Shown here in pieces: positions 28,852 through 39,648 of a stretch of 40,857 nt of DNA. How positions within the stretch are numbered: position 1 is the first letter of the stretch; the number at the start of each line of letters is the position of its first letter. A model generated the notes under the pieces. It did no database searches. It saw nothing but the letters and a program-made list of their open reading frames with translations, and was not told where the DNA came from. The translations under genes and the position numbers were made by a program. The DNA is from Hyphomicrobiales bacterium (GTDB lineage Bacteria > Pseudomonadota > Alphaproteobacteria > Rhizobiales > Beijerinckiaceae). The DNA lies in the NCBI GenBank assembly GCA_947455995.1, contig CANGQA010000014.1, positions 1 through 40,857 of the forward strand, given 5' to 3'.

Positions 28852-31800
28852 CTATTCGGCGGCTTGCGGCAGCACAAAGCGGGGACGACCTTTCAATTCC
28901 TTGAGGAAATCCAGCTCTTGTTGCTTAACAGCCTCAATATGGCGCAACCGGACATGGCCGAAACCACGGATTTGATCGGGCAGGCAAGCCAGTTTGACTG
29001 CCACCGCATAATTATCCACCGTCAACTGCGCGACCAGATCGGCAAGACGGGCACGGTAATCTTGCAGCAAGCGCCTTTCCATCCGCCGCTCCCTTGTATA
29101 ACCGAACAGATCAAGTGGCGTGCCACGCAACCATCGGAGGGCCGACAACAGCGTGAAGCCCCACATCATCTTTGGCCCGTAACTGGTTTTGACGGGATGG
29201 CCGTTATGATCCTTGCGGCCTAGCAGCGGCGGTGCCAGATGGAATTCGAACCTGATCTGACCTTCGAAATCACGGGCAACCTGTTGCTTGAACCGTCCAT
29301 CCGAGAATAAGCGCCCGACCTCGTATTCGTCCTTGATTGCCATCAGCTTGAACAGGCCACGCACCACAGCCTCGGTCAACTCGGTCGAGTCCGGTTTAAC
29401 GTGCTGTTCAGCCTTCCGCACGGTCTCGACAAGCTGCGTGAACTGGCGGGCATAGCGGCTTGATTGATAGTCTTTCAAAAAGGCGGCACGCCGCTCGATC
29501 CGCTCATCCAATGTCGAAGACAGCACCAGATGGGAGACCGGCTGGCCAGGATTGGCGGTGGCAGGATTGGAGGTGGCAGGATTTGAGCCCAAGTCTAGAA
29601 CGGTTTGGGGATCGATCACCGCCCGCCGCCCCCATTCGAAAGCCGCCACATTCATCGCCACCGCCTCGCCATTCAACCGGATCGCCTCGATCAGCGAGGC
29701 CGATGACAGTGGCACTTTGCCACGCTGGAACGCATAGCCGAGCATGAACATATTGGCAGCAATGGCATTGCCCAGCAAACGCATGGCGATGCTTGTGGCA
29801 TCAATCAATTCGGTTCCTTCAGGTCCAGTCGCATCACGTAAAGCCCGTTTTATTTTTTCAGCCGGAAGCAAAAAATCGGCATTGCGGGTAAAATCCCCGG
29901 GCATCACCTCCGCTGTATTGGCAAGCACATACGTCCCGTCCTGCCGGATGCCAGCCAGTACTTTTTTGCTGCCCGTAACCACCAGATCGCAGCCAAGGAC
30001 CAGATCGGCTTCGCCCGCCGCCACGCGAATGGCATGGATATCCTGGGGACGCGGTGCCAATTTGACATGACTAAACACCGCCCCGCCTTTTTGCGCCAGG
30101 CCAGCCATGTCGATCATTCCGCAGCCTTTGCCTTCGAGATGCGCGGCCATGCCGATAATCGCCCCGATGGTCACCACGCCCGTCCCGCCGACACCCGTAA
30201 CAATGATGGCATAATTGCGCGACAACGGTTCATAGATGGGCTCAGGAAGATCAAACCCTTTGCTATCGGCAACCAGCGGTGCAGATTTTTTAATGCTGGC
30301 ACCATGCAGCGTGACAAAGGAGGGACAAAACCCTTCGATACAAGAAAAATCCTTGTTGCAACCTGACTGGTCGATGACCCGCTTGCGGCCGAATTCGGTC
30401 TCCAGCGGCTGGATGGCAATGCAGTTGGATACCTCGCCGCAATCGCCGCACCCTTCGCAAACCAGCTCGTTGATCACCACACGTTTATCGGGGTCGGGGA
30501 ACTGGCCACGCTTGCGCCGCCTGCGCTTTTCGGCCGCACAGGTCTGGTCATAGATCAAAACGCTCACGCCCGGCACATCGGCAATCATCCGCTGCACCTC
30601 ATCCAGTTGCGAACGATGGTGAATGGTCAGGCCAATCGGCCAGTCTGTATTCGGTGCATATTTGTCAGGCTCATCGGTCACCACCACCACTTTGGAAACG
30701 CCTTCAGCCGCAACCTGGCGGGCGATCATATCGACTGTCAGGTTTCCTTCATGATGCTGCCCCCCCGTCATGGCCACGGCATCATTGAACAGGATTTTAT
30801 AGGTCATGTGGGTTTTGGCCGAGACGGCAAAACGGATCGCCAACAAGCCGGAATGATTATAGGTCCCATCGCCTAAATTCTGGAACACATGGGTGCGGTG
30901 GGAGAAAGCAGATTCGCCCACCCAGTTGGCTCCCTCACCGCCCATCTGGGTAAAGCCCTCGGTTTCGCGATCCATCCATTGCACCATGTAATGGCACCCG
31001 ATGCCCGCATAAGCGCGCATGCCTTCCGGCACTTTTGTGGAGGAGTTATGCGGACAGCCCGCGCAGAAATGCGGAACGCGGCTGCCCACATCCTGCACCT
31101 CGGACAAATAGGCCTGTAATTGTTTGAGCCGCTGCACCCTCGCGCGCAGCTCCTCACTCTCGTGAAAGCGCAGCAGCCGTTCGCCAATGGCGATCCCAAT
31201 GTCATTGGGATCGAGCGCACCTTTGACCGGAAACAGCCATTCACCCTGCTCGTCGCGTTTGCCGATGCAAACCGGTTGGTGCGGCTTGCCATACAGCTCC
31301 TCGCGCAGTTGCACCTCGATCAGTGAGCGTTTTTCTTCGACCACAATGACGAGTTCGAGACCGCGCACAAATTCGGCCAGTCCGACAGGTTCGAGCGGCC
31401 AAGCGCAACCGATTTTATACAAACGCAAACCAATGCTGTTGGCTTGCGCCTCGTCTATGCCCAAATCATCAAGAGCCTGGCGAACATCCAAATAGCTTTT
31501 GCCGACTGTGATAATGCCGACACGCGGCGCAGTCCCACCCGACATCACGATGCGGTTGATCGGATTGGCCCGCAAAAAGGCCAGCATGGCATCACGTTTA
31601 TAGTCTTGAAGCCTTTCTTCCATCGCCAGAATACCATCGCGTGGACGGATATTGAGCCCGCCCCTCGGCATCGCGAAATCACTTGGCTGACGGATCGTCA
31701 CCCGATCAATCGAGCCATCGACGACGGCGGTCGATTCAACCGTATCTTTCACGCCTTTCAAAGCCACCCATGCCCCGGTATAACGGCTCATCGCAAATCC

Positions 31801-32406
31801 GTAGAGACCGTAATCGAGCACCTCCTGCACGCCGGCAGGATTCAGGATCGGCATCATCACATCGACAAAATGGAATTCAGATTGGTGGGCTGTTGTCGAA
31901 CTTTCGGCGGTGTGGTCATCCCCCATCAGGGCCAGCACGCCACCCCATTCAGAAGTGCCGGCCATATTGGCATGGCGGAACACATCCCCTGAGCGGTCAA
32001 CCCCTGGCCCCTTGCCATACCAGAGCGAAAACACACCGTCATACTTGCCCTCGCCCCGCATCTCGGCCTGCTGGGTACCCCAACAGGCGGTGGCTGCAAG
32101 CTCCTCGTTGATGCCGGGCGTAAACACAATATGGGCTGCATCCAGCGGCTTGCGGAAACGGTGCAGCTGCTGGTCCAAGGCACCCAGCGGCGAACCGCGA
32201 TAGCCTGAAATGAAACCGGCGGTGTTGCGGCCCTGCAGCGTGTCGCGCTCATGCTGCATCAGCATCATGCGAATAACCGCCTGCGTGCCTGTCATAAAGA
32301 TGCGCTGTTTGGAAAGATCGAATTTATCATCCAACGAGACGCCAAAATCTTTCGGCAAAACAGTGCCGCCAGATGTCGATTGGGTGCCTTGTGTGTCGCC
32401 CGCCAT
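28852..32406 (-). CDS. Single-chain indolepyruvate ferredoxin oxidoreductase (IorAB-type fusion)
   Basis: 1184 residues from the ATG at 32406, supported by GGGGAG six bases upstream. Thiamine-diphosphate enzyme that decarboxylates aryl-pyruvates to aryl-acetyl-CoA, passing electrons through Fe-S clusters. Order: pyruvate-binding alpha domain (SGYRGSPLGALDQQ at 68-80), thiamine domain with CAGCPHN at 448-454 and GDGTYNHSG at 512-520, ferredoxin-type Cys C650-C653-C656-C662 plus C683, C689 and C694, gamma domain from about 732 (VTGVGGTGVVTIG), then a C-terminal domain of about 220 residues found in proteobacterial forms. A NPATSNPATANP repeat links the last two parts. Head gene of the aromatic-acid region; it may act in phenylalanine, tyrosine or tryptophan breakdown. 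Confidence 0.93.
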   Translation of the reverse strand: MAGDTQGTQSTSGGTVLPKDFGVSLDDKFDLSKQRIFMTGTQAVIRMMLMQHERDTLQGRNTAGFISGYRGSPLGALDQQLHRFRKPLDAAHIVFTPGINEELAATACWGTQQAEMRGEGKYDGVFSLWYGKGPGVDRSGDVFRHANMAGTSEWGGVLALMGDDHTAESSTTAHQSEFHFVDVMMPILNPAGVQEVLDYGLYGFAMSRYTGAWVALKGVKDTVESTAVVDGSIDRVTIRQPSDFAMPRGGLNIRPRDGILAMEERLQDYKRDAMLAFLRANPINRIVMSGGTAPRVGIITVGKSYLDVRQALDDLGIDEAQANSIGLRLYKIGCAWPLEPVGLAEFVRGLELVIVVEEKRSLIEVQLREELYGKPHQPVCIGKRDEQGEWLFPVKGALDPNDIGIAIGERLLRFHESEELRARVQRLKQLQAYLSEVQDVGSRVPHFCAGCPHNSSTKVPEGMRAYAGIGCHYMVQWMDRETEGFTQMGGEGANWVGESAFSHRTHVFQNLGDGTYNHSGLLAIRFAVSAKTHMTYKILFNDAVAMTGGQHHEGNLTVDMIARQVAAEGVSKVVVVTDEPDKYAPNTDWPIGLTIHHRSQLDEVQRMIADVPGVSVLIYDQTCAAEKRRRRKRGQFPDPDKRVVINELVCEGCGDCGEVSNCIAIQPLETEFGRKRVIDQSGCNKDFSCIEGFCPSFVTLHGASIKKSAPLVADSKGFDLPEPIYEPLSRNYAIIVTGVGGTGVVTIGAIIGMAAHLEGKGCGMIDMAGLAQKGGAVFSHVKLAPRPQDIHAIRVAAGEADLVLGCDLVVTGSKKVLAGIRQDGTYVLANTAEVMPGDFTRNADFLLPAEKIKRALRDATGPEGTELIDATSIAMRLLGNAIAANMFMLGYAFQRGKVPLSSASLIEAIRLNGEAVAMNVAAFEWGRRAVIDPQTVLDLGSNPATSNPATANPGQPVSHLVLSSTLDERIERRAAFLKDYQSSRYARQFTQLVETVRKAEQHVKPDSTELTEAVVRGLFKLMAIKDEYEVGRLFSDGRFKQQVARDFEGQIRFEFHLAPPLLGRKDHNGHPVKTSYGPKMMWGFTLLSALRWLRGTPLDLFGYTRERRMERRLLQDYRARLADLVAQLTVDNYAVAVKLACLPDQIRGFGHVRLRHIEAVKQQELDFLKELKGRPRFVLPQAAE

Positions 32407-32733
32407 AACATCTCCCCCGCCCGCAAAAGCCCGCTGAACCACCCTCTTACGGGGTTTGCATCCAGCAAAAGGACCGGAAGGCCGGCTCGATTGCTGTGCC
32501 TGACCTTATGGCGATCCTGAACGTCCAAAAAAATTAATCAAGAAGAATTCATCTTATTAGGTCAGTAAAGCTGACATAATGCACGGAGGTCGTCAAGCAT
32601 TCCGTTTTTATCCTCCGATTGAAACCATTGTCTTGGAACCATTGTCTTGAAACCATTGTCTTGCCCCACTTGCCTGCTAGTTGAACATTGGGGACAGTGC
32701 CTGTGTGATTCGGTTGGCTGCCAGGGAGATTGA
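32407..32733. promoter_or_regulatory. Divergent intergenic region, indolepyruvate oxidoreductase versus DUF1007/NicO
   Basis: About 327 bases without a gene. It contains an inverted repeat GTCAG-N5-CTGAC at 32561-32575, overlapping a CATAAT that could be a plus-strand -10 box, and three tandem 14-base repeats at 32622-32663. I checked for a cobalamin riboswitch B12 box, since NicO genes are often under one, and saw none. No tRNA-like structure was seen. Confidence 0.45.
32622..32663. repeat. Three tandem 14-bp repeats (RAACCATTGTCTTG)
   Basis: AAACCATTGTCTTG, GAACCATTGTCTTG and AAACCATTGTCTTG follow one another with no gap at 32622, 32636 and 32650, differing at one base. They lie about 70-110 bases before the DUF1007 start, where iterated sites could bind a regulator or could be simple replication slippage. 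Confidence 0.85.
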
Positions 32734-33387
32734 ATGCGCAAATTATGGTGGATCTATGCCCTCTTCGGGACTGTTATTGGGCTGTGTCTGAACGGATCAA
32801 AAGCAGTTGCGCATCCGCATGTGCAAGTGGAAGCCAGCGCCAGCCTGCTGTTTTCGGGCACAGGTCAGGTGATCGGCCTCCAGCATCACTGGCAATTTGA
32901 CGAGGCCTATTCAGCCTTTGCCGTCCAAGGTCTCGATGCTAATGGTGATGGTAAAATCAGCCGCGCGGAACTCGCCGACCTTGCCAAGGAAAATACCGAA
33001 TCGCTGAGTGAATTCGACTATTTCACCAAATTGAAAATAGACGGGAAAAAGCTCGATTTCGCCAATCCGGTCGATTACTGGCTTGAGTATGACAATGGCA
33101 AACTGACCCTTCATTTCACCTTGCCGCTGAAAGGACCAACCAAGATAGCCAGAACCAGCGGGATTGAGCTGTATGATCCCACCTATTTCGTTGCCTTCAC
33201 CTTCCGCGAGGGTGATCAGGCCTTCTCCTTGAAATCTGGTCCCAGTGGATGCGTGGCCACCATCACACGGCCAAAGGCGCCCACCCAAACAAGCCAGAAC
33301 CTCAACGAGAGCTTTTTCAACACCCTGTCAGCCAAAGGCGATTTTGGTGCACAATATGCCAACCGCGTTCTGGTTGCCTGCCCCTAA
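32734..33387 (+). CDS. DUF1007 family exported protein, partner of NicO transporter
   Basis: 217 residues. Signal peptide at 1-26 (LWWIYALFGTVIGLCLNGSKAVA) followed by HPHVQVEAS, the usual start of the mature DUF1007 domain with a His pair that may bind metal. An EF-hand-like loop, LDANGDGKISRAEL, lies at 67-80. Members commonly sit directly before NicO/RcnA-type nickel/cobalt transporters, as here (12 bases), and are thought to assist metal delivery in the periplasm. Exact role is unproven. Two Cys near the C-terminus (GCVATI and VLVACP) could form a disulfide. Confidence 0.87.
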   Translation: MRKLWWIYALFGTVIGLCLNGSKAVAHPHVQVEASASLLFSGTGQVIGLQHHWQFDEAYSAFAVQGLDANGDGKISRAELADLAKENTESLSEFDYFTKLKIDGKKLDFANPVDYWLEYDNGKLTLHFTLPLKGPTKIARTSGIELYDPTYFVAFTFREGDQAFSLKSGPSGCVATITRPKAPTQTSQNLNESFFNTLSAKGDFGAQYANRVLVACP

Positions 33388-33399
33388 GGGTTCCATGCC

Positions 33400-34452
33400 A
33401 TGCCACATCACCACGTCCATGATCATTCCCCCATGACGCATGAGCACCCCCATGAGCACCCCCATGAGCACCCCGCCGCGCACATCTGGCGGCAAATCGC
33501 ACTTTTCGTGTTGTCTTTGGCCCTGATCACCGGATTGGGGATCGTGGTAAGCCAGTTTACTGGTTCACTGGTCCCACCTGCGGGAAAAAATCCGTTCGGT
33601 GCTGGCATGCGCGAAGGGGCCGGTGCGGCTGGCGGCATCATGGGGATGATATCGACACTGCAAAGCCTGTTTTCAGCCCACATTATTGCAGGGCTGAAAG
33701 AATTCTCCCAATCGAGCGAAGCAGTGTGGGGCCTGCTTGGGATCAGTTTCATCTATGGTGTGGTCCATGCGGCGGGGCCCGGGCATGGCAAGGCCGTGAT
33801 TGCGGCCTATGTGCTGGCCAGCAAAACGGCTCTGAAGCGCGGCATAGGCATGGCCGTGGCAGCGGCTTTGCTGCAAGCCCTTGTCGCCATCTCGCTGGTC
33901 GGCCTGTTCTCGATCGTTCTGCGCGCCACTGCCTCTGGTCTGTCAGCGATGGCCGGTCGGATCGAACAGATCAGTTTTGCAGCCGTTGCTTTGGTCGGAC
34001 TTTGGCTGCTCTGGGGTAAAGCAGGACGGCTCGCTGCCCTGATCGCACCCCAGGTGGTACAGGATCACCATCATCATCACCATGGCGAGGCCTGCGGTTG
34101 CGGCCACAGCCACGCACCGATTGCGCCGCAAGAAGCGGGAATGCGTGATATGGCGCTGGCCGTTCTTGCGGCAGGTATCCGCCCTTGTTCGGGGGCTATT
34201 CTGGTGCTGGTCTTTGCCCTGGCGCAGGGCCTGTTTGGTGTCGGAATTGCCGCAGCCCTTGTCATGGGGCTGGGGACGGCATTGACCACCAGCGTGTTGG
34301 CCTGCCTTGCTGTCCTGACCCGTCATACAGCCATTCGGATGAGTGGTGGAACAGAAAGTCTCCTCGGCCAACGCGTTATCACCGGATTGGAGGTGCTGGC
34401 CGCCGCCTTCGTGGCGTGGATGGGTGCAGCCTTTCTGTTTGCCGGCCTATGA
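33400..34452 (+). CDS. NicO/RcnA-family nickel/cobalt transporter with His-rich segments
   Basis: 350 residues. Inner-membrane Ni2+/Co2+ permease of the NicO family; related proteins act in uptake or, as RcnA, in efflux. Seen: His-rich N-terminus (MPHHHVHDHSP, then HEHPHEHPHEHP) before the first membrane segment, GVVHAAGPGHGKAV near residues 118-131 (the family metal-site motif), a second His-rich loop DHHHHHHGEACGCGHSH, and IRPCSGAILVLVFALAQG near 262-279. Direction of transport cannot be read from sequence, but neighbourhood with a cobalt enzyme favours supplying cobalt (inference). It ends six bases inside the end of the convergent accessory-protein gene. Confidence 0.92.
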   Translation: MPHHHVHDHSPMTHEHPHEHPHEHPAAHIWRQIALFVLSLALITGLGIVVSQFTGSLVPPAGKNPFGAGMREGAGAAGGIMGMISTLQSLFSAHIIAGLKEFSQSSEAVWGLLGISFIYGVVHAAGPGHGKAVIAAYVLASKTALKRGIGMAVAAALLQALVAISLVGLFSIVLRATASGLSAMAGRIEQISFAAVALVGLWLLWGKAGRLAALIAPQVVQDHHHHHHGEACGCGHSHAPIAPQEAGMRDMALAVLAAGIRPCSGAILVLVFALAQGLFGVGIAAALVMGLGTALTTSVLACLAVLTRHTAIRMSGGTESLLGQRVITGLEVLAAAFVAWMGAAFLFAGL

Positions 34453-34821
34453 GGCGAGCGGATCATTTTCCAGCATGATCGGCTGGCCATGCGGAGTGGC
34501 TTTGGCTGCTCTGTTCCAGGCCGACTGAACCTGTTTGAGATGGTCGAAACTTGTTGCACCTTTGCTGACAGTCAGCCCTTCCAGCGTAGCCAGCCAGTGC
34601 TGATAATAGGTTTCCCCTGTATCGGGATCGCCCGCCATTTGCGCCACTTTGATTTGTGCCGATAGGGCTGCCGCCCATTCGCTCCACGTGAACAGGCCTT
34701 TTGCATGGGCATCAACCGCCAGCGCGAAGGCTTGTGCCTCCCATGGCTCGCGAAACACCGGACCCTCGACATCGCAAGGCAGAGCCGGGATCAGGTTCAG
34801 CATATCAGCTGGCACGGTCAT
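34447..34821 (-). CDS. Nitrile hydratase accessory protein (activator, P14K/NhlE-like)
   Basis: 124 residues from the ATG at 34821, overlapping the beta-subunit stop by four bases. The pattern FREPWEAQAFALAVDAHAKG, FTWSEWAAALSAQI and GETYYQHWLATLEGL is that of accessory proteins related to the N-terminal part of the beta subunit. In characterised cobalt-type systems this protein carries the alpha subunit during cobalt insertion and then swaps it into the final enzyme. No His-rich or Cys-rich metal site is visible here, so the His-rich alpha extension may take over metal capture (inference). The 3' end overlaps the convergent NicO gene by six bases. Confidence 0.88.
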   Translation of the reverse strand: MTVPADMLNLIPALPCDVEGPVFREPWEAQAFALAVDAHAKGLFTWSEWAAALSAQIKVAQMAGDPDTGETYYQHWLATLEGLTVSKGATSFDHLKQVQSAWNRAAKATPHGQPIMLENDPLAS

Positions 34822-35486
34822 GCGGCGCGATCCTGAAAATAGGGTTCCCAACAATCCACGATCACTTCAAGGCTGGCATCGGCCTCTGCTCCCCATAATT
34901 CGCGACCAGAGAATTTGACGCCATAGCACCAGTGCGGCTGCTCGCCCAGACCATGGGCATGACTGTCCGGAAACACGAAGGCCCCATGCACCGCCACAAT
35001 TTCGCCTGCCTTGCCGCGCGCATAACGGGGCAGACGCGTATGGGTGGAAGGATGCATGACTTTGGTCACAATGCGCTCGCCAATCCCGAAACGTGCCGGA
35101 TGGTCGACAGGACGATCATAAGGGCTGCCTTTGGACAGCGCCGCAGCAACCTGAAACTGATCGGCTTTAGGCTTTTTGGTGGCCACTGGCGGGACGAGGG
35201 TTCGAGCCGCTGCGACCTCCTCGGGCGTCACCATTCCGCGTTCCGCAAGCATATTGGCCAGCGCCCGGGTCCAGATCTCGTAATAGGACACCGAAAGATA
35301 GATATGGGGAGGCAGGCTTTCGCGCGCATGGCGCCCCATATCGAGGTTCCATTCACCCAGAGCAGCCGAGGCAAGAGTGATCGCCAAAGCGCGCTTTTCC
35401 CAGTCGGCATGAAACACTGGCTCGTCCACTTCTGGACGCACCGGCCCGAAGCCCATCATGCCGCCTAAATCCTGCGGACCGTTCAT
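34818..35486 (-). CDS. nthB: Nitrile hydratase beta subunit
   Basis: 222 residues from the ATG at 35486, which overlaps the alpha stop (ATGA). The start [16 protein letters not shown] is diagnostic. Arg52 (in MGRHARE) and Arg157 (in [11 protein letters not shown]) fall at exactly the positions of the two beta-subunit arginines that hydrogen-bond to the oxidised alpha-subunit cysteines in known enzymes. The C-terminal [11 protein letters not shown] and VDCWEPYF are also family features. With the alpha subunit it forms the nitrile-to-amide hydrating enzyme. Confidence 0.96.
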
Positions 35487-36223
35487 TGGCTTGCACCTGC
35501 GGCAAGCGGCAGGCCGGTGCCGATCATGCTGTCGCGGGTGACCAGTTCGGCAAGGCGTTCCTCGCTCCAATTCTTGGTGCCTGCAGGGCGTTGAGGCAGC
35601 ACCAGATAGCGGATTTCAGCGGTCGAATCCCACACACGAATGGTCTTGTCCTTCGGCAAAGCCAGGCCAAAATCGGATAGGACGCCACGCGGATCCATCA
35701 CCGCTCTGGAGCGGTAAGGCGCGGATTTATACCAGACCGGCGGCAGGCCCAAAACCGGCCACGGATAGCACGAGCACAAGGTGCAGACGACGAGGTTGTG
35801 GATCTGGTCGGTGTTTTCAACCACTTTCAAATGCTCGCCCTGCCGTCCCGAAAACGACAGTTCTGCCACCGCCGCAGTCCCGTCTTCCAGCAGGCGTTGT
35901 TTATAGGCAGGATCAACCCATGCCTTGGCGACGACCTGCGCCCCGCAGCGAGGACCAATTTTAGTCTCGTAGGTCTCGACGATCAGATCAAGCGCGTCGG
36001 GATCGACATAGCCTTTGGCAAGCAAAACGGTTTCAAGCGCACGCACCCGAATAGCCGCCTCGGACAATTCCGAGCCATGATCATGGTCGTGATCATGATC
36101 GTGATGATGGCCGTGATGGTGATGGCCGTGATCATGCGGGTGATCGTGCGGGTGATCATGGGGGTGATCATGGGGGTGATCATGGGGATGATCGTGATCT
36201 GGATCGTGATGTTGCGTGCTCAT
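35483..36223 (-). CDS. nthA: Cobalt-type nitrile hydratase alpha subunit with His-rich N-terminal extension
   Basis: 246 residues from the ATG at 36223; an upstream TTG start at 36262 is less likely. Hydrates nitriles to amides at a low-spin metal centre. The claw CTLCSC at 147-152 has Thr at the second position, which marks cobalt-type enzymes (iron-type have Ser). The catalytic domain from about residue 52 is normal: [28 protein letters not shown] and [16 protein letters not shown]. Unusual: residues 5-49 hold 25 His, including five PHDH units, a HHHH and DH repeats. Such a stretch could bind several Co2+ ions and act as a built-in metal store or chaperone (inference). It is divergent from an SDR gene, and the three-gene operon is tightly overlapped. 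Confidence 0.95.
36077..36211 (-). repeat. Low-complexity His/Asp/Pro-coding repeat in the nitrile hydratase alpha gene
   Basis: The stretch encoding residues 5-49 consists largely of 12-base units (PHDH) and 6-base units (DH). The codons vary little, so slippage may change the copy number between strains. Confidence 0.85.
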
Positions 36224-38445: not shown

Positions 38446-39648
38446 TCAGGCGATTTGCTGTTGGGCTTTTGCAAAAATATCGGCCGCCAGATGCGCCAGT
38501 GAGCGATCCGAACCGCGTGGGCCCAGAATGGAGATTCCCATCGGGGCTCCTGCCTTGGTCAACATCGGCAGGGTGATCTGCGGGCACCCGCTCAGGCCCG
38601 ATGGGCAAAGCAGACGCATCGATTGATTGCGTTGCAACTCCAGCTCGTCCTCGGACGCCGCCATCAAAGACGGCACATCCGGCACTGTCGGCAGCAGCAG
38701 CACCCCATCGGATCCCAAAATTTGGTCGAGATGGGCACGGAAAGCGGCACGCACCTTCCGGTTCGTTGCCTCCTGCTCGGCTGTCACACCTTTGGAAAAG
38801 GCAAAACGTTCAGCGATGCCGGGTCCGAGCGCGGGACGATGCTTGGTGATGAAGTCGCCGTGTGACTGCCAAGCCTCGCGGCCTTGCAGGAAACGGAACG
38901 CCCAGAACAGCGTGTCAAAATCAGGCTTGGCGATCTCCTGATGCTCCAGCGGCGAGACCATCCTGTCAATCCGGGCAAACAGGGCTTCAAAGAGAGCGCG
39001 GGCTTCCGGATCGGTTTGCTGGACCAGATCGGTGGCCAGAATCAGCCGTGGCTTGGCGGGTAAAGGATGCGGATCCTGCCCCAAAATCGCATCAGCCACT
39101 TTGGTGAAGGTCGCGGCATCCCGTGTAAACCAGCCGGGCGTATCAAAACTGGCTGCCAAAGGCATGGTCAGATCGAGAGGCAGGCGATCATGCGTTGGGC
39201 GGATCCCGAACAAGCCGCAATAGCTGGCGGGCCCGCGCACCGAGCCGCCTGTATCGGAGCCAAGACCGATATCGCATTGCCCGCCAGCGGTGGCCGACGC
39301 CGAACCGGAGGAGGAGCCACCCGGAATCCGGTCCGGTGCTGCCGGATTGATCGGCGTGCCGAAATGCGCATTTTTACCATTGAGGGAGAAGGCCAGCTCA
39401 ACAGTATGCGTCTTGCCGTTGCAATGGGCGCCTGCATCCAGAAACATCTGCACAAAGGGTGCGGTTTTCGTTTTGATCCCCGACAAAGCAAGTGCATGCG
39501 GTTGGCCCCAGCCCGAGGGATAGCCTGCAACATCGAAAATATCTTTGACCCCAATCGACAACCCGCTCAGCGGCCCTGTGGCGGCATGGGGAACGTCGAC
39601 TGAAGGATAAGGCAGATAGGCGTGATAGGGATCTTGGGAAATGGTCAT
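38446..39648 (-). CDS. Amidase-signature hydrolase, AMI1 (indole-3-acetamide hydrolase)-like
   Basis: 400 residues, compact for the amidase-signature family. Catalytic Ser-cisSer-Lys triad: Lys35 in GVKDIFD, Ser112 in GGSSSGSA and Ser136 in SDTGGSVRGPAS. The spacing equals that of plant AMI1 shifted by one residue, and GVKDIFDVAGY is AMI1-like. It hydrolyses a primary amide to acid and ammonia, which fits the product of the nitrile hydratase 2 kb away. Arylacetamides such as indole-3-acetamide are the closest guess. GAGG lies six bases before the ATG. Transcribed after the gamma-glutamyltransferase gene across 57 bases, on the same strand. Confidence 0.9.
   Translation of the reverse strand: MTISQDPYHAYLPYPSVDVPHAATGPLSGLSIGVKDIFDVAGYPSGWGQPHALALSGIKTKTAPFVQMFLDAGAHCNGKTHTVELAFSLNGKNAHFGTPINPAAPDRIPGGSSSGSASATAGGQCDIGLGSDTGGSVRGPASYCGLFGIRPTHDRLPLDLTMPLAASFDTPGWFTRDAATFTKVADAILGQDPHPLPAKPRLILATDLVQQTDPEARALFEALFARIDRMVSPLEHQEIAKPDFDTLFWAFRFLQGREAWQSHGDFITKHRPALGPGIAERFAFSKGVTAEQEATNRKVRAAFRAHLDQILGSDGVLLLPTVPDVPSLMAASEDELELQRNQSMRLLCPSGLSGCPQITLPMLTKAGAPMGISILGPRGSDRSLAHLAADIFAKAQQQIA

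What the first reader, a model, noticed from the sequence alone, without database searches (positions are those of the whole stretch)
36077..36223. Cobalt-type nitrile hydratase alpha subunit with a built-in 25-histidine metal-binding tail
Residues 5-49 contain 25 His plus Asp and Pro in PHDH and DH units, joined directly to a normal CTLCSC-type alpha subunit. Ordinary bacterial alpha subunits lack this. A His-rich segment is known in a fused eukaryotic (choanoflagellate) nitrile hydratase and in nickel chaperones such as HypB. I infer a self-contained cobalt store that could assist or replace activator-mediated metal insertion. It may be a distinct subclass of nitrile hydratase.
Basis: partly seen in the sequence, partly recalled or inferred. 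Interest (0 to 1): 0.75.

Follow-up and report, generated by a model that had tools for sequence, protein, structure and literature searches.

The report
Extra-long histidine tail on nitrile hydratase
A cobalt enzyme that breaks down nitriles carries an unusually long histidine-rich tail; shorter tails of the same kind turn out to be common in its bacterial relatives, so this one is an extreme case of a widespread, little-noticed feature that probably helps gather cobalt.

Summary
The alpha subunit of a cobalt-type nitrile hydratase (NHase) begins at ATG 36223 (minus strand) with a 49-residue leader holding 25 His.

The claim that ordinary bacterial alpha subunits lack this is wrong. Of 325 distinct near-full-length family members examined (not a random sample), 299 have at least one His in the N-terminal leader, 264 at least three, 179 at least five, 43 at least ten. 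The window's 25 is the maximum; its nearest relative has 20. Short versions occur in solved enzymes: a cobalt NHase (3qxe) and thiocyanate hydrolase.

The tail lies in an array of in-frame 12-base repeats and is predicted disordered. "Replaces the activator" is not supported: an activator gene sits beside it, and short-tailed P. putida NHase needs its activator and holds about one cobalt per alpha-beta pair.

Best reading: a flexible arm that transiently concentrates Co2+ for activator-dependent loading (inferred, untested). Where alpha has 0-2 His, the activator C-terminus is more often His-rich, 13 of 42 against 5 of 200; tree-aware pairs do not support this.

The parts
35483..36223 (-). nitrile hydratase alpha subunit, 246 aa, with stop codon
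   Evidence: TIGR01323 305.7 bits, PF02979 295.2 bits; only PF02979 match in the genome held, which is 94% complete
36077..36223 (-). His/Asp/Pro leader, residues 1-49 (25 His, 12 Asp, 6 Pro)
   Evidence: residues 1-9, 11-40 and 44-50 have pLDDT under 50 in the AlphaFold2 model
36128..36193 (.). 12-base tandem array (5.5 copies, 92% matches) behind the PHDH units
   Evidence: Tandem Repeats Finder
35768..35785 (-). active-site motif CTLCSC (residues 147-152), the cobalt-type form
   Evidence: that CTLCSC marks the cobalt type is established knowledge, not tested here
34818..35492 (-). nitrile hydratase beta subunit, 224 aa; overlaps the end of alpha by 10 bases
   Evidence: TIGR03888 245.2 bits, cut-off 152.2
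34447..34821 (-). NHase accessory protein (activator, P14K/epsilon type), 124 aa; overlaps the end of beta by 4 bases
   Evidence: TIGR03889 92.6 bits, cut-off 46
33400..34452 (+). NicO-family Ni/Co transporter with its own His stretches, convergent with the activator gene
   Evidence: PF03824 91.7 bits; His stretches; same arrangement in 13 of 172 related loci
32734..33387 (+). DUF1007 protein, gene beside the NicO transporter
   Evidence: PF06226 200.9 bits; found with NicO in the same 13 loci

Best explanation
It is an ordinary, probably activator-dependent cobalt-type nitrile hydratase whose alpha subunit carries the longest version I found of an N-terminal His/Asp leader common in this enzyme family. 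SHOWN by sequence, prediction or literature: the leader lies in the open frame before the conserved core, is predicted disordered, differs between close relatives, is built here of 12-base and in the nearest relative of 6-base in-frame repeats, and its short counterpart in P. putida is translated and retained. INFERRED: its alternating imidazole and carboxylate groups bind divalent metal loosely and reversibly. As a flexible arm on the subunit that receives cobalt, it raises the local Co2+ concentration (or buffers competing metal) around alpha and the alpha-activator complex. The activator still does the loading, cysteine oxidation and subunit swapping. A long tail should matter mainly when cobalt is scarce or fluctuates.
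For: Leader in 299 (>=1 His), 264 (>=3) and 179 (>=5) of 325 distinct alpha-family proteins. His is 29.9% of leader residues against 0.9% of the first 60 core residues; His codons 1719 against Gln codons 109, with third positions free (CAT 678, CAC 1041), which points to selection for His at protein level (309 proteins). Successive His codons in leaders with >=5 His differ in 539 of 1231 cases, 549 expected on shuffling. The homologous cobalt enzyme thiocyanate hydrolase has [12 protein letters not shown] at the same end. Strong His clustering (>=8 in 40 aa) is in 75 of 325 alphas, against 10 of 382 beta and 8 of 250 activator frames (frames run from stop to stop and were not de-duplicated). 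NicO+DUF1007 stands convergent and downstream in 13 of 172 related loci. Some other loci have the cluster on the activator. Precedents: HypB His tails suggested to store or buffer nickel (PMC7055735); a His-rich extension of a CbiX cobalt chelatase proposed for metal storage and delivery (PMC7689651).
Against: No metal binding was measured here, and I saw none reported for a bacterial NHase tail. P. putida NHase (short tail) holds 0.88 Co per alpha-beta, and added cobalt alone does not activate its apo-enzyme. Deleting the CbiX His region did not affect cobalt insertion (PMC7689651). Tail-less cobalt-type enzymes exist: 52 of 312 CTLCSC proteins have under 3 His. Leaders differ even between close relatives, as for a weakly constrained repeat. 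At a milder threshold (>=5 His in 40 aa) beta frames are as rich as alphas, 194 of 382 against 183 of 325, so moderate His density alone is not special to alpha. Detected metal-transporter genes are relatively most frequent next to alphas with 0-2 His, 8 of 21. The Fe-type comparison is too small to test metal specificity.
Confidence: 0.45

Rival explanations
1. Weakly constrained repeat: a short functional or neutral HDH leader grew by replication slippage in this lineage; the extra length has no function of its own.
For: 12-base array in the window; the nearest relative has a 72-base perfect hexamer array and 20 His; leaders differ in 21 of 25 pairs of cores with >=95% identity, mean His difference 1.2; tail-less enzymes exist.
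Against: Neutral drift should produce Gln and other codons; His:Gln codons are 1719:109 over 309 leaders, and the window's His codons are a mixed 13 CAT and 12 CAC. Some His is kept in 299 of 325 proteins. These speak for selection on His, less for selection on this length.
Confidence: 0.3
2. General metal buffer or protection: the enzyme sequesters excess Co/Ni/Zn/Cu in the cytosol, independent of its own maturation.
For: A NicO transporter with His stretches sits beside it, with a weak match, far below cut-off, to the nickel/cobalt efflux model PRK10019 (33.6 of 195 bits). HypB-type tails are suggested to store nickel.
Against: The strongest clusters sit on alpha and, in some loci, on the activator rather than on beta, which fits the loading complex better than a general sink; P. 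putida NHase with a short tail holds no extra cobalt.
Confidence: 0.12
3. Self-sufficient cobalt store that replaces the activator.
For: 25 His is near the 24 of B. japonicum HypB, so several metal ions per subunit are plausible.
Against: Activator gene present above cut-off and overlapping beta; 29 of 29 loci with >=10 His and enough flank keep two beta/activator-type frames; P14K is necessary in short-tailed P. putida, where even an added His-T7 tag neither raised the cobalt content nor allowed activation by cobalt alone.
Confidence: 0.05
4. The tail is not translated: the protein starts at TTG (residue 53) or GTG (residue 60).
For: Both codons are in frame and the first predicted helix begins at residue 55.
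Against: ATG before the His stretch in relatives; codon use shows protein-level selection for His; P. putida alpha was sequenced from GQSHTHD.
Confidence: 0.03

Closest known systems
Cobalt-type NHase alpha of PDB 3qxe (Pseudomonas putida by recall; one search does not name the organism)
   Same: Same core and motif; short leader MGQSHTHDHHHDG in the chain sequence, agreeing with GQSHTHD found by N-terminal sequencing of P. putida NRRL-18668 alpha; alpha-beta-activator gene order
   Different: 5 His instead of 25; no extra cobalt bound after purification
Thiocyanate hydrolase gamma subunit (PDB 2dd4)
   Same: Homologous cobalt subunit with [12 protein letters not shown] near its N-terminus
   Different: Different substrate and subunit make-up (recalled); the window protein stays below the model's cut-off (184.1 of 291.45 bits)
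Fused beta-alpha NHase of Monosiga brevicollis and some other eukaryotes
   Same: His-rich stretch between the beta and alpha domains, 17 residues in Monosiga (PMC3323583, passages)
   Different: Internal, between fused subunits. From recall only: a 2018 deletion study (title seen in the reference list of PMC7193024; paper not held) found the stretch not required for metallocentre assembly
HypB with His-rich N-terminal region (Bradyrhizobium japonicum)
   Same: 24 His, suggested nickel storage and buffering (PMC7055735, passages)
   Different: A GTPase accessory protein for nickel, not the enzyme subunit itself
His-rich N-terminal domain of Cu,Zn superoxide dismutases of some bacteria
   Same: His-rich extension on the metalloenzyme itself, proposed as metal chaperoning (only the title, seen in the reference list of PMC8382915)
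   Different: Copper enzyme of an unrelated family; I did not read that paper

Membership tests
Nitrile hydratase alpha subunit | Match to the equivalog model TIGR01323 above its cut-off | tested here: met
   305.7 bits, cut-off 249.85
Cobalt-type nitrile hydratase | Active-site motif CTLCSC (recalled as the cobalt-type form) | tested here: met
   residues 147-152
Cobalt-type nitrile hydratase | Beta subunit and P14K/epsilon-type activator genes alongside | tested here: met
   TIGR03888 and TIGR03889 above cut-off, overlapping genes
Cobalt-type nitrile hydratase | Bound non-corrin cobalt and nitrile-hydrating activity | not testable with these tools
   needs purified protein
His-led NHase alphas (my own grouping: N-terminal His/Asp leader) | At least 3 His in the leader before the core | tested here: met
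   25; 264 of 325 family members meet it
Thiocyanate hydrolase gamma | Match to TIGR03887 above its cut-off | tested here: not met
   184.1 bits, cut-off 291.45
Fe-type nitrile hydratase | CSLCSC motif (recalled as the usual Fe-type form) | tested here: not met
   CTLCSC
Metal-storing His tail (HypB-like function) | Binds several metal ions per subunit | not testable with these tools
   no binding data; short-tailed P. putida NHase keeps 0.88 Co per alpha-beta

The most novel reading that the evidence does not exclude
The His-rich arm is a movable module of the alpha-activator cobalt-loading complex in cobalt NHases and thiocyanate hydrolase. It usually sits on the alpha N-terminus; in some lineages with a bare alpha it sits on the activator C-terminus (16 and 15 His in L298 and L295, 9 in L299 and in L020) or as an HDHDH-like insert in a second beta-like protein (L179, L182). 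Its length is a slippage-tuned dial for cobalt capture, and the window's 25-His tail is the extreme setting. The exchange part rests on uncorrected counts; the tree-aware pairs do not support it.
Probability: 0.22. Interest if true: 0.65.

Novelty: new member of a known kind. Interest (0 to 1): 0.4.

Why it matters
How cobalt reaches NHase, an industrial enzyme, is described mainly through the activator and subunit swapping. A His leader in most of the alpha subunits examined here (264 of 325 with at least 3 His), stretched to 25 His in this one and possibly shifted to the activator in some lineages, would be an overlooked part of that pathway, easily tested by tail deletion and swapping. It would also suggest that adding or trimming natural tails could tune cobalt demand, and that many of these enzymes carry a built-in metal-affinity handle. 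In what I saw of the papers found (open-licence papers only; listings, and passages of some) a His stretch was remarked on only for eukaryotic NHases; subscription papers were not searchable, so prior mention is possible.

Tried and rejected
Rejected: 'unique to this protein'; 'distinct subclass' (continuous lengths, many state changes on the tree); 'tail stands in for a missing activator'; wrong start codon; tail length following a metal-transporter neighbour (transporter families in 8 of 21 loci with 0-2 His, 5 of 68 with 3-5, 6 of 54 with 6-9, 5 of 29 with >=10; my seeds cover only some families, some hits listed are weak, and three of the eight, L191-L193, are near-identical).

Inconclusive: Fe-type against Co-type. 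Only 9 CSLCSC proteins, 2 of them with >=3 His (L275, L276), and the CSLCSC genes L191-L193 lie near a CbiM-like gene, so the motif is an imperfect marker. A search with a CSLCSC protein to enlarge that set returned mainly the same alphas. Alpha/activator exchange: strong in the raw table (13 of 42 against 5 of 200, Fisher p 1e-7), but the rank correlation is weak (rho -0.13, p 0.04). With a stricter cluster definition the counts are 7 of 99 against 2 of 142. Tree-aware pairs gave no significant result, almost no pair being informative: at alpha >=3 they lean slightly or not at all towards exchange, and at alpha >=5 with activator >=5 or >=6 they lean the other way (about 1.5 pairs the same way against 0.1-0.2). 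Some activator counts include His of the conserved core (for example L194), a few of the 242 activator frames look spurious (L190 appears twice; L152), and L191-L193, L295/L298/L299 and L304/L307 are groups of relatives. Attempts to enlarge the tail-less set reached only 24 and 3 genomes and brought no new near-full-length alpha.

Limits of the survey: class-sample loci were fetched from the top of a score-ranked list (more matches exist than were listed), and about 80 loci are the window's nearest relatives, so the 325 are not a random sample. In the class sample alone, 106 of 132 have >=3 His and 4 have >=15. Six partial frames were dropped and 37 duplicates collapsed. Leader starts follow a rule (nearest upstream ATG, extended over His-rich gaps), not proteomics. 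The tree and the codon counts rest on an earlier set of 309 proteins. The phylum of G744 is that of a MAG labelled Solirubrobacterales, and the label may be wrong. A genome-wide ranking of His-rich proteins could not be made.

Full report
What is there. The minus-strand ORF 35483-36223 encodes 246 aa; residues 1-49 hold 25 His, 12 Asp and 6 Pro, against 1.44 His expected by composition (P about 1.5e-25). The rest is a nitrile hydratase alpha subunit (TIGR01323 305.7 bits) with the motif CTLCSC. Beta (TIGR03888) and an accessory/activator protein (TIGR03889, 92.6 bits, cut-off 46) follow as overlapping genes. It is the only alpha gene in the genome held, which is 94% complete. Convergent to the operon lie a NicO transporter, itself with His stretches, and DUF1007.

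Is it unusual? I collected alpha-family proteins from the class of the window's genome (142 of 385 genomes have a match), from a phylum sample (61 of 398), two further orders (51 of 200; 12 of 214, some of them weak), another phylum (25 of 198), the best 80 loci of named genomes and eight plasmid stretches. After dropping six partial frames and collapsing duplicates (362 to 325), 299 of 325 have at least one His in the leader, 264 at least three, 179 at least five, 43 at least ten and 6 at least fifteen. The window's 25 is the maximum and 20 (L032, 86% identical core) comes next. By group, >=3 His: class sample 106 of 132, nearest set 79 of 81, phylum sample 37 of 42, order of G605 24 of 28, order of G643 3 of 8, phylum of G744 12 of 25, plasmids 2 of 8, and the window itself. 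So the feature is common in the window's own class and phylum (Pseudomonadota, to judge by its named nearest relatives) and patchier outside. These are not random samples: rows were taken from the top of score-ranked lists.

Known relatives already carry it. The cobalt NHase chain 3qxe (P. putida by recall) has MGQSHTHDHHHDG before the core, and thiocyanate hydrolase gamma 2dd4 has [12 protein letters not shown]. Some fused eukaryotic NHases have a His-rich stretch before the alpha domain, others do not (PMC3323583, passages; PMC2603476, passages). Full-text searches for NHase with histidine-rich, histidine residues, His-rich, a natural His-tag, an HDH repeat or polyhistidine showed me such a stretch remarked on only for eukaryotes. 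I saw listings, and passages of some of those papers; only open-licence papers are held. PMC3511329 prints the P. putida N-terminus GQSHTHD but its main text does not contain the word histidine.

How it evolves. Leaders are 29.9% His and 18.1% Asp; His codons outnumber Gln codons 1719 to 109 while CAT and CAC are mixed (678:1041), and the first 60 core residues are 0.9% His (309 proteins). Successive His codons in leaders with >=5 His differ in 539 of 1231 cases, 549 expected on shuffling. This fits protein-level selection for His. Length is fluid: the window's tail is a 12-base array (5.5 copies, 92% matches) and L032 has a 72-base perfect hexamer array. Pairs with >=95% core identity differ in leader sequence in 21 of 25 cases, by 1.2 His on average. 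On the tree of 309 cores the >=10 His state needs at least 31 changes, so long tails are not one subclass.

How it may work. The AlphaFold2 model (45 sequences, mean pLDDT 77.7) leaves residues 1-9, 11-40 and 44-50 under pLDDT 50, and the first helix starts at 55: a flexible arm on the subunit that receives cobalt. In P. putida the activator P14K forms alpha(P14K)2, takes up cobalt and passes loaded alpha to the enzyme. Alpha there starts GQSHTHD; holo-enzyme holds 0.88 Co per alpha-beta; and cobalt alone does not activate apo-enzyme, even with an added His-T7 tag (PMC3511329, passages and section 17; PMC4709657, passages). So a short tail neither holds extra cobalt through purification nor replaces the activator. 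The window has an activator too, and among the 172 loci with enough flank two or more beta/activator-type frames are present in 29 of 29 with >=10 His, 51 of 54 with 6-9, 63 of 68 with 3-5 and 19 of 21 with 0-2. The best remaining role is loose, reversible concentration or buffering of Co2+ near the loading complex. That is inference; I have no binding data.

Is the His special to alpha? Strong clusters (>=8 His in 40 aa) are in 75 of 325 alphas against 10 of 382 beta and 8 of 250 activator frames; at >=5 the difference vanishes (alpha 183 of 325, beta 194 of 382, activator 45 of 250), because beta has moderately His-dense stretches of its own.

Cobalt context. NicO plus DUF1007 stand convergent and downstream in 13 of 172 loci, always in that orientation, besides the window. 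Some plasmid NHase clusters have other metal-transport genes in a similar place: NiCoT in Rhodococcus, an ECF permease in Klebsiella, HupE/UreJ in Picosynechococcus, CbtB-CbtA in Acinetobacter; the other stretches, in Gloeocapsopsis, Haladaptatus and another Rhodococcus, list none, and the Rhizobium record has no annotation. The transporter families that I could detect are not commoner beside long-tailed alphas; the highest share is in the 0-2 His group, 8 of 21.

A lead worth following. In some loci where alpha has a bare start, the activator ends in a His cluster: 16 and 15 His in L298 and L295, 9 in L299 and L020, and a heptahistidine in L130; L179 and L182 instead have an HDHDH-like insert in a second beta-like protein. 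An activator C-terminus (last 45 aa) with >=5 His occurs in 13 of 42 loci with alpha His <=2 and in 5 of 200 with >=3 (Fisher p 1e-7). Against it: the rank correlation is weak (rho -0.13), a stricter cluster definition gives 7 of 99 against 2 of 142, some counts include core His, several loci are close relatives, and tree-aware pairs gave nothing significant; with the alpha threshold at 5 and the activator threshold at 5 or 6 they even lean the other way, about 1.5 pairs against 0.1-0.2. It remains a hypothesis; having looked again I lowered its probability from 0.25 to 0.22.

Verdict. The finding is accurate, but it is the extreme of a widespread, largely unremarked feature rather than a new subclass. 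The interest lies in the family-wide pattern and in the possible exchange of the His arm between alpha and activator, not in this single protein.

Noticed in passing
window 32734-34452 (+): NicO transporter and DUF1007 gene convergent with the NHase operon; NicO and activator genes overlap by 6 bases at their ends. The same arrangement is in 13 of 172 related loci.
   Followed up: partly
L295, L298, L299, L020, L130, L200, L324: Activator proteins with His-rich C-terminal stretches, mostly where alpha lacks a His leader (L200 is an exception, alpha with 5 His).
   Followed up: partly
L179, L182: Tail-less alpha; a second beta-like protein carries an HDHDH-like insert.
   Followed up: no
L191, L192, L193: CSLCSC alpha subunits (a motif usually taken as Fe-type, by recall) with a CbiM-like metal transporter gene nearby.
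   Followed up: no
L275, L276: CSLCSC alpha subunits that nevertheless carry leaders with 7 and 6 His.
   Followed up: no
window 38446-39648 (-): Amidase-family gene (PF01425) on the NHase strand, about 2.2 kb upstream and separated by an SDR and an acyl-CoA dehydrogenase gene on the other strand; could act on the amide product.
   Followed up: no
window 28852-32442 (-): Long protein with POR, TPP-binding and DUF6537 domains, by domain content an indolepyruvate-ferredoxin-oxidoreductase-like enzyme (name recalled).
   Followed up: no
L032: Nearest relative lies in a MAG labelled Comamonadaceae although many of the next relatives are labelled Hyphomicrobiales or allied families: transfer or a binning error.
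   Followed up: no
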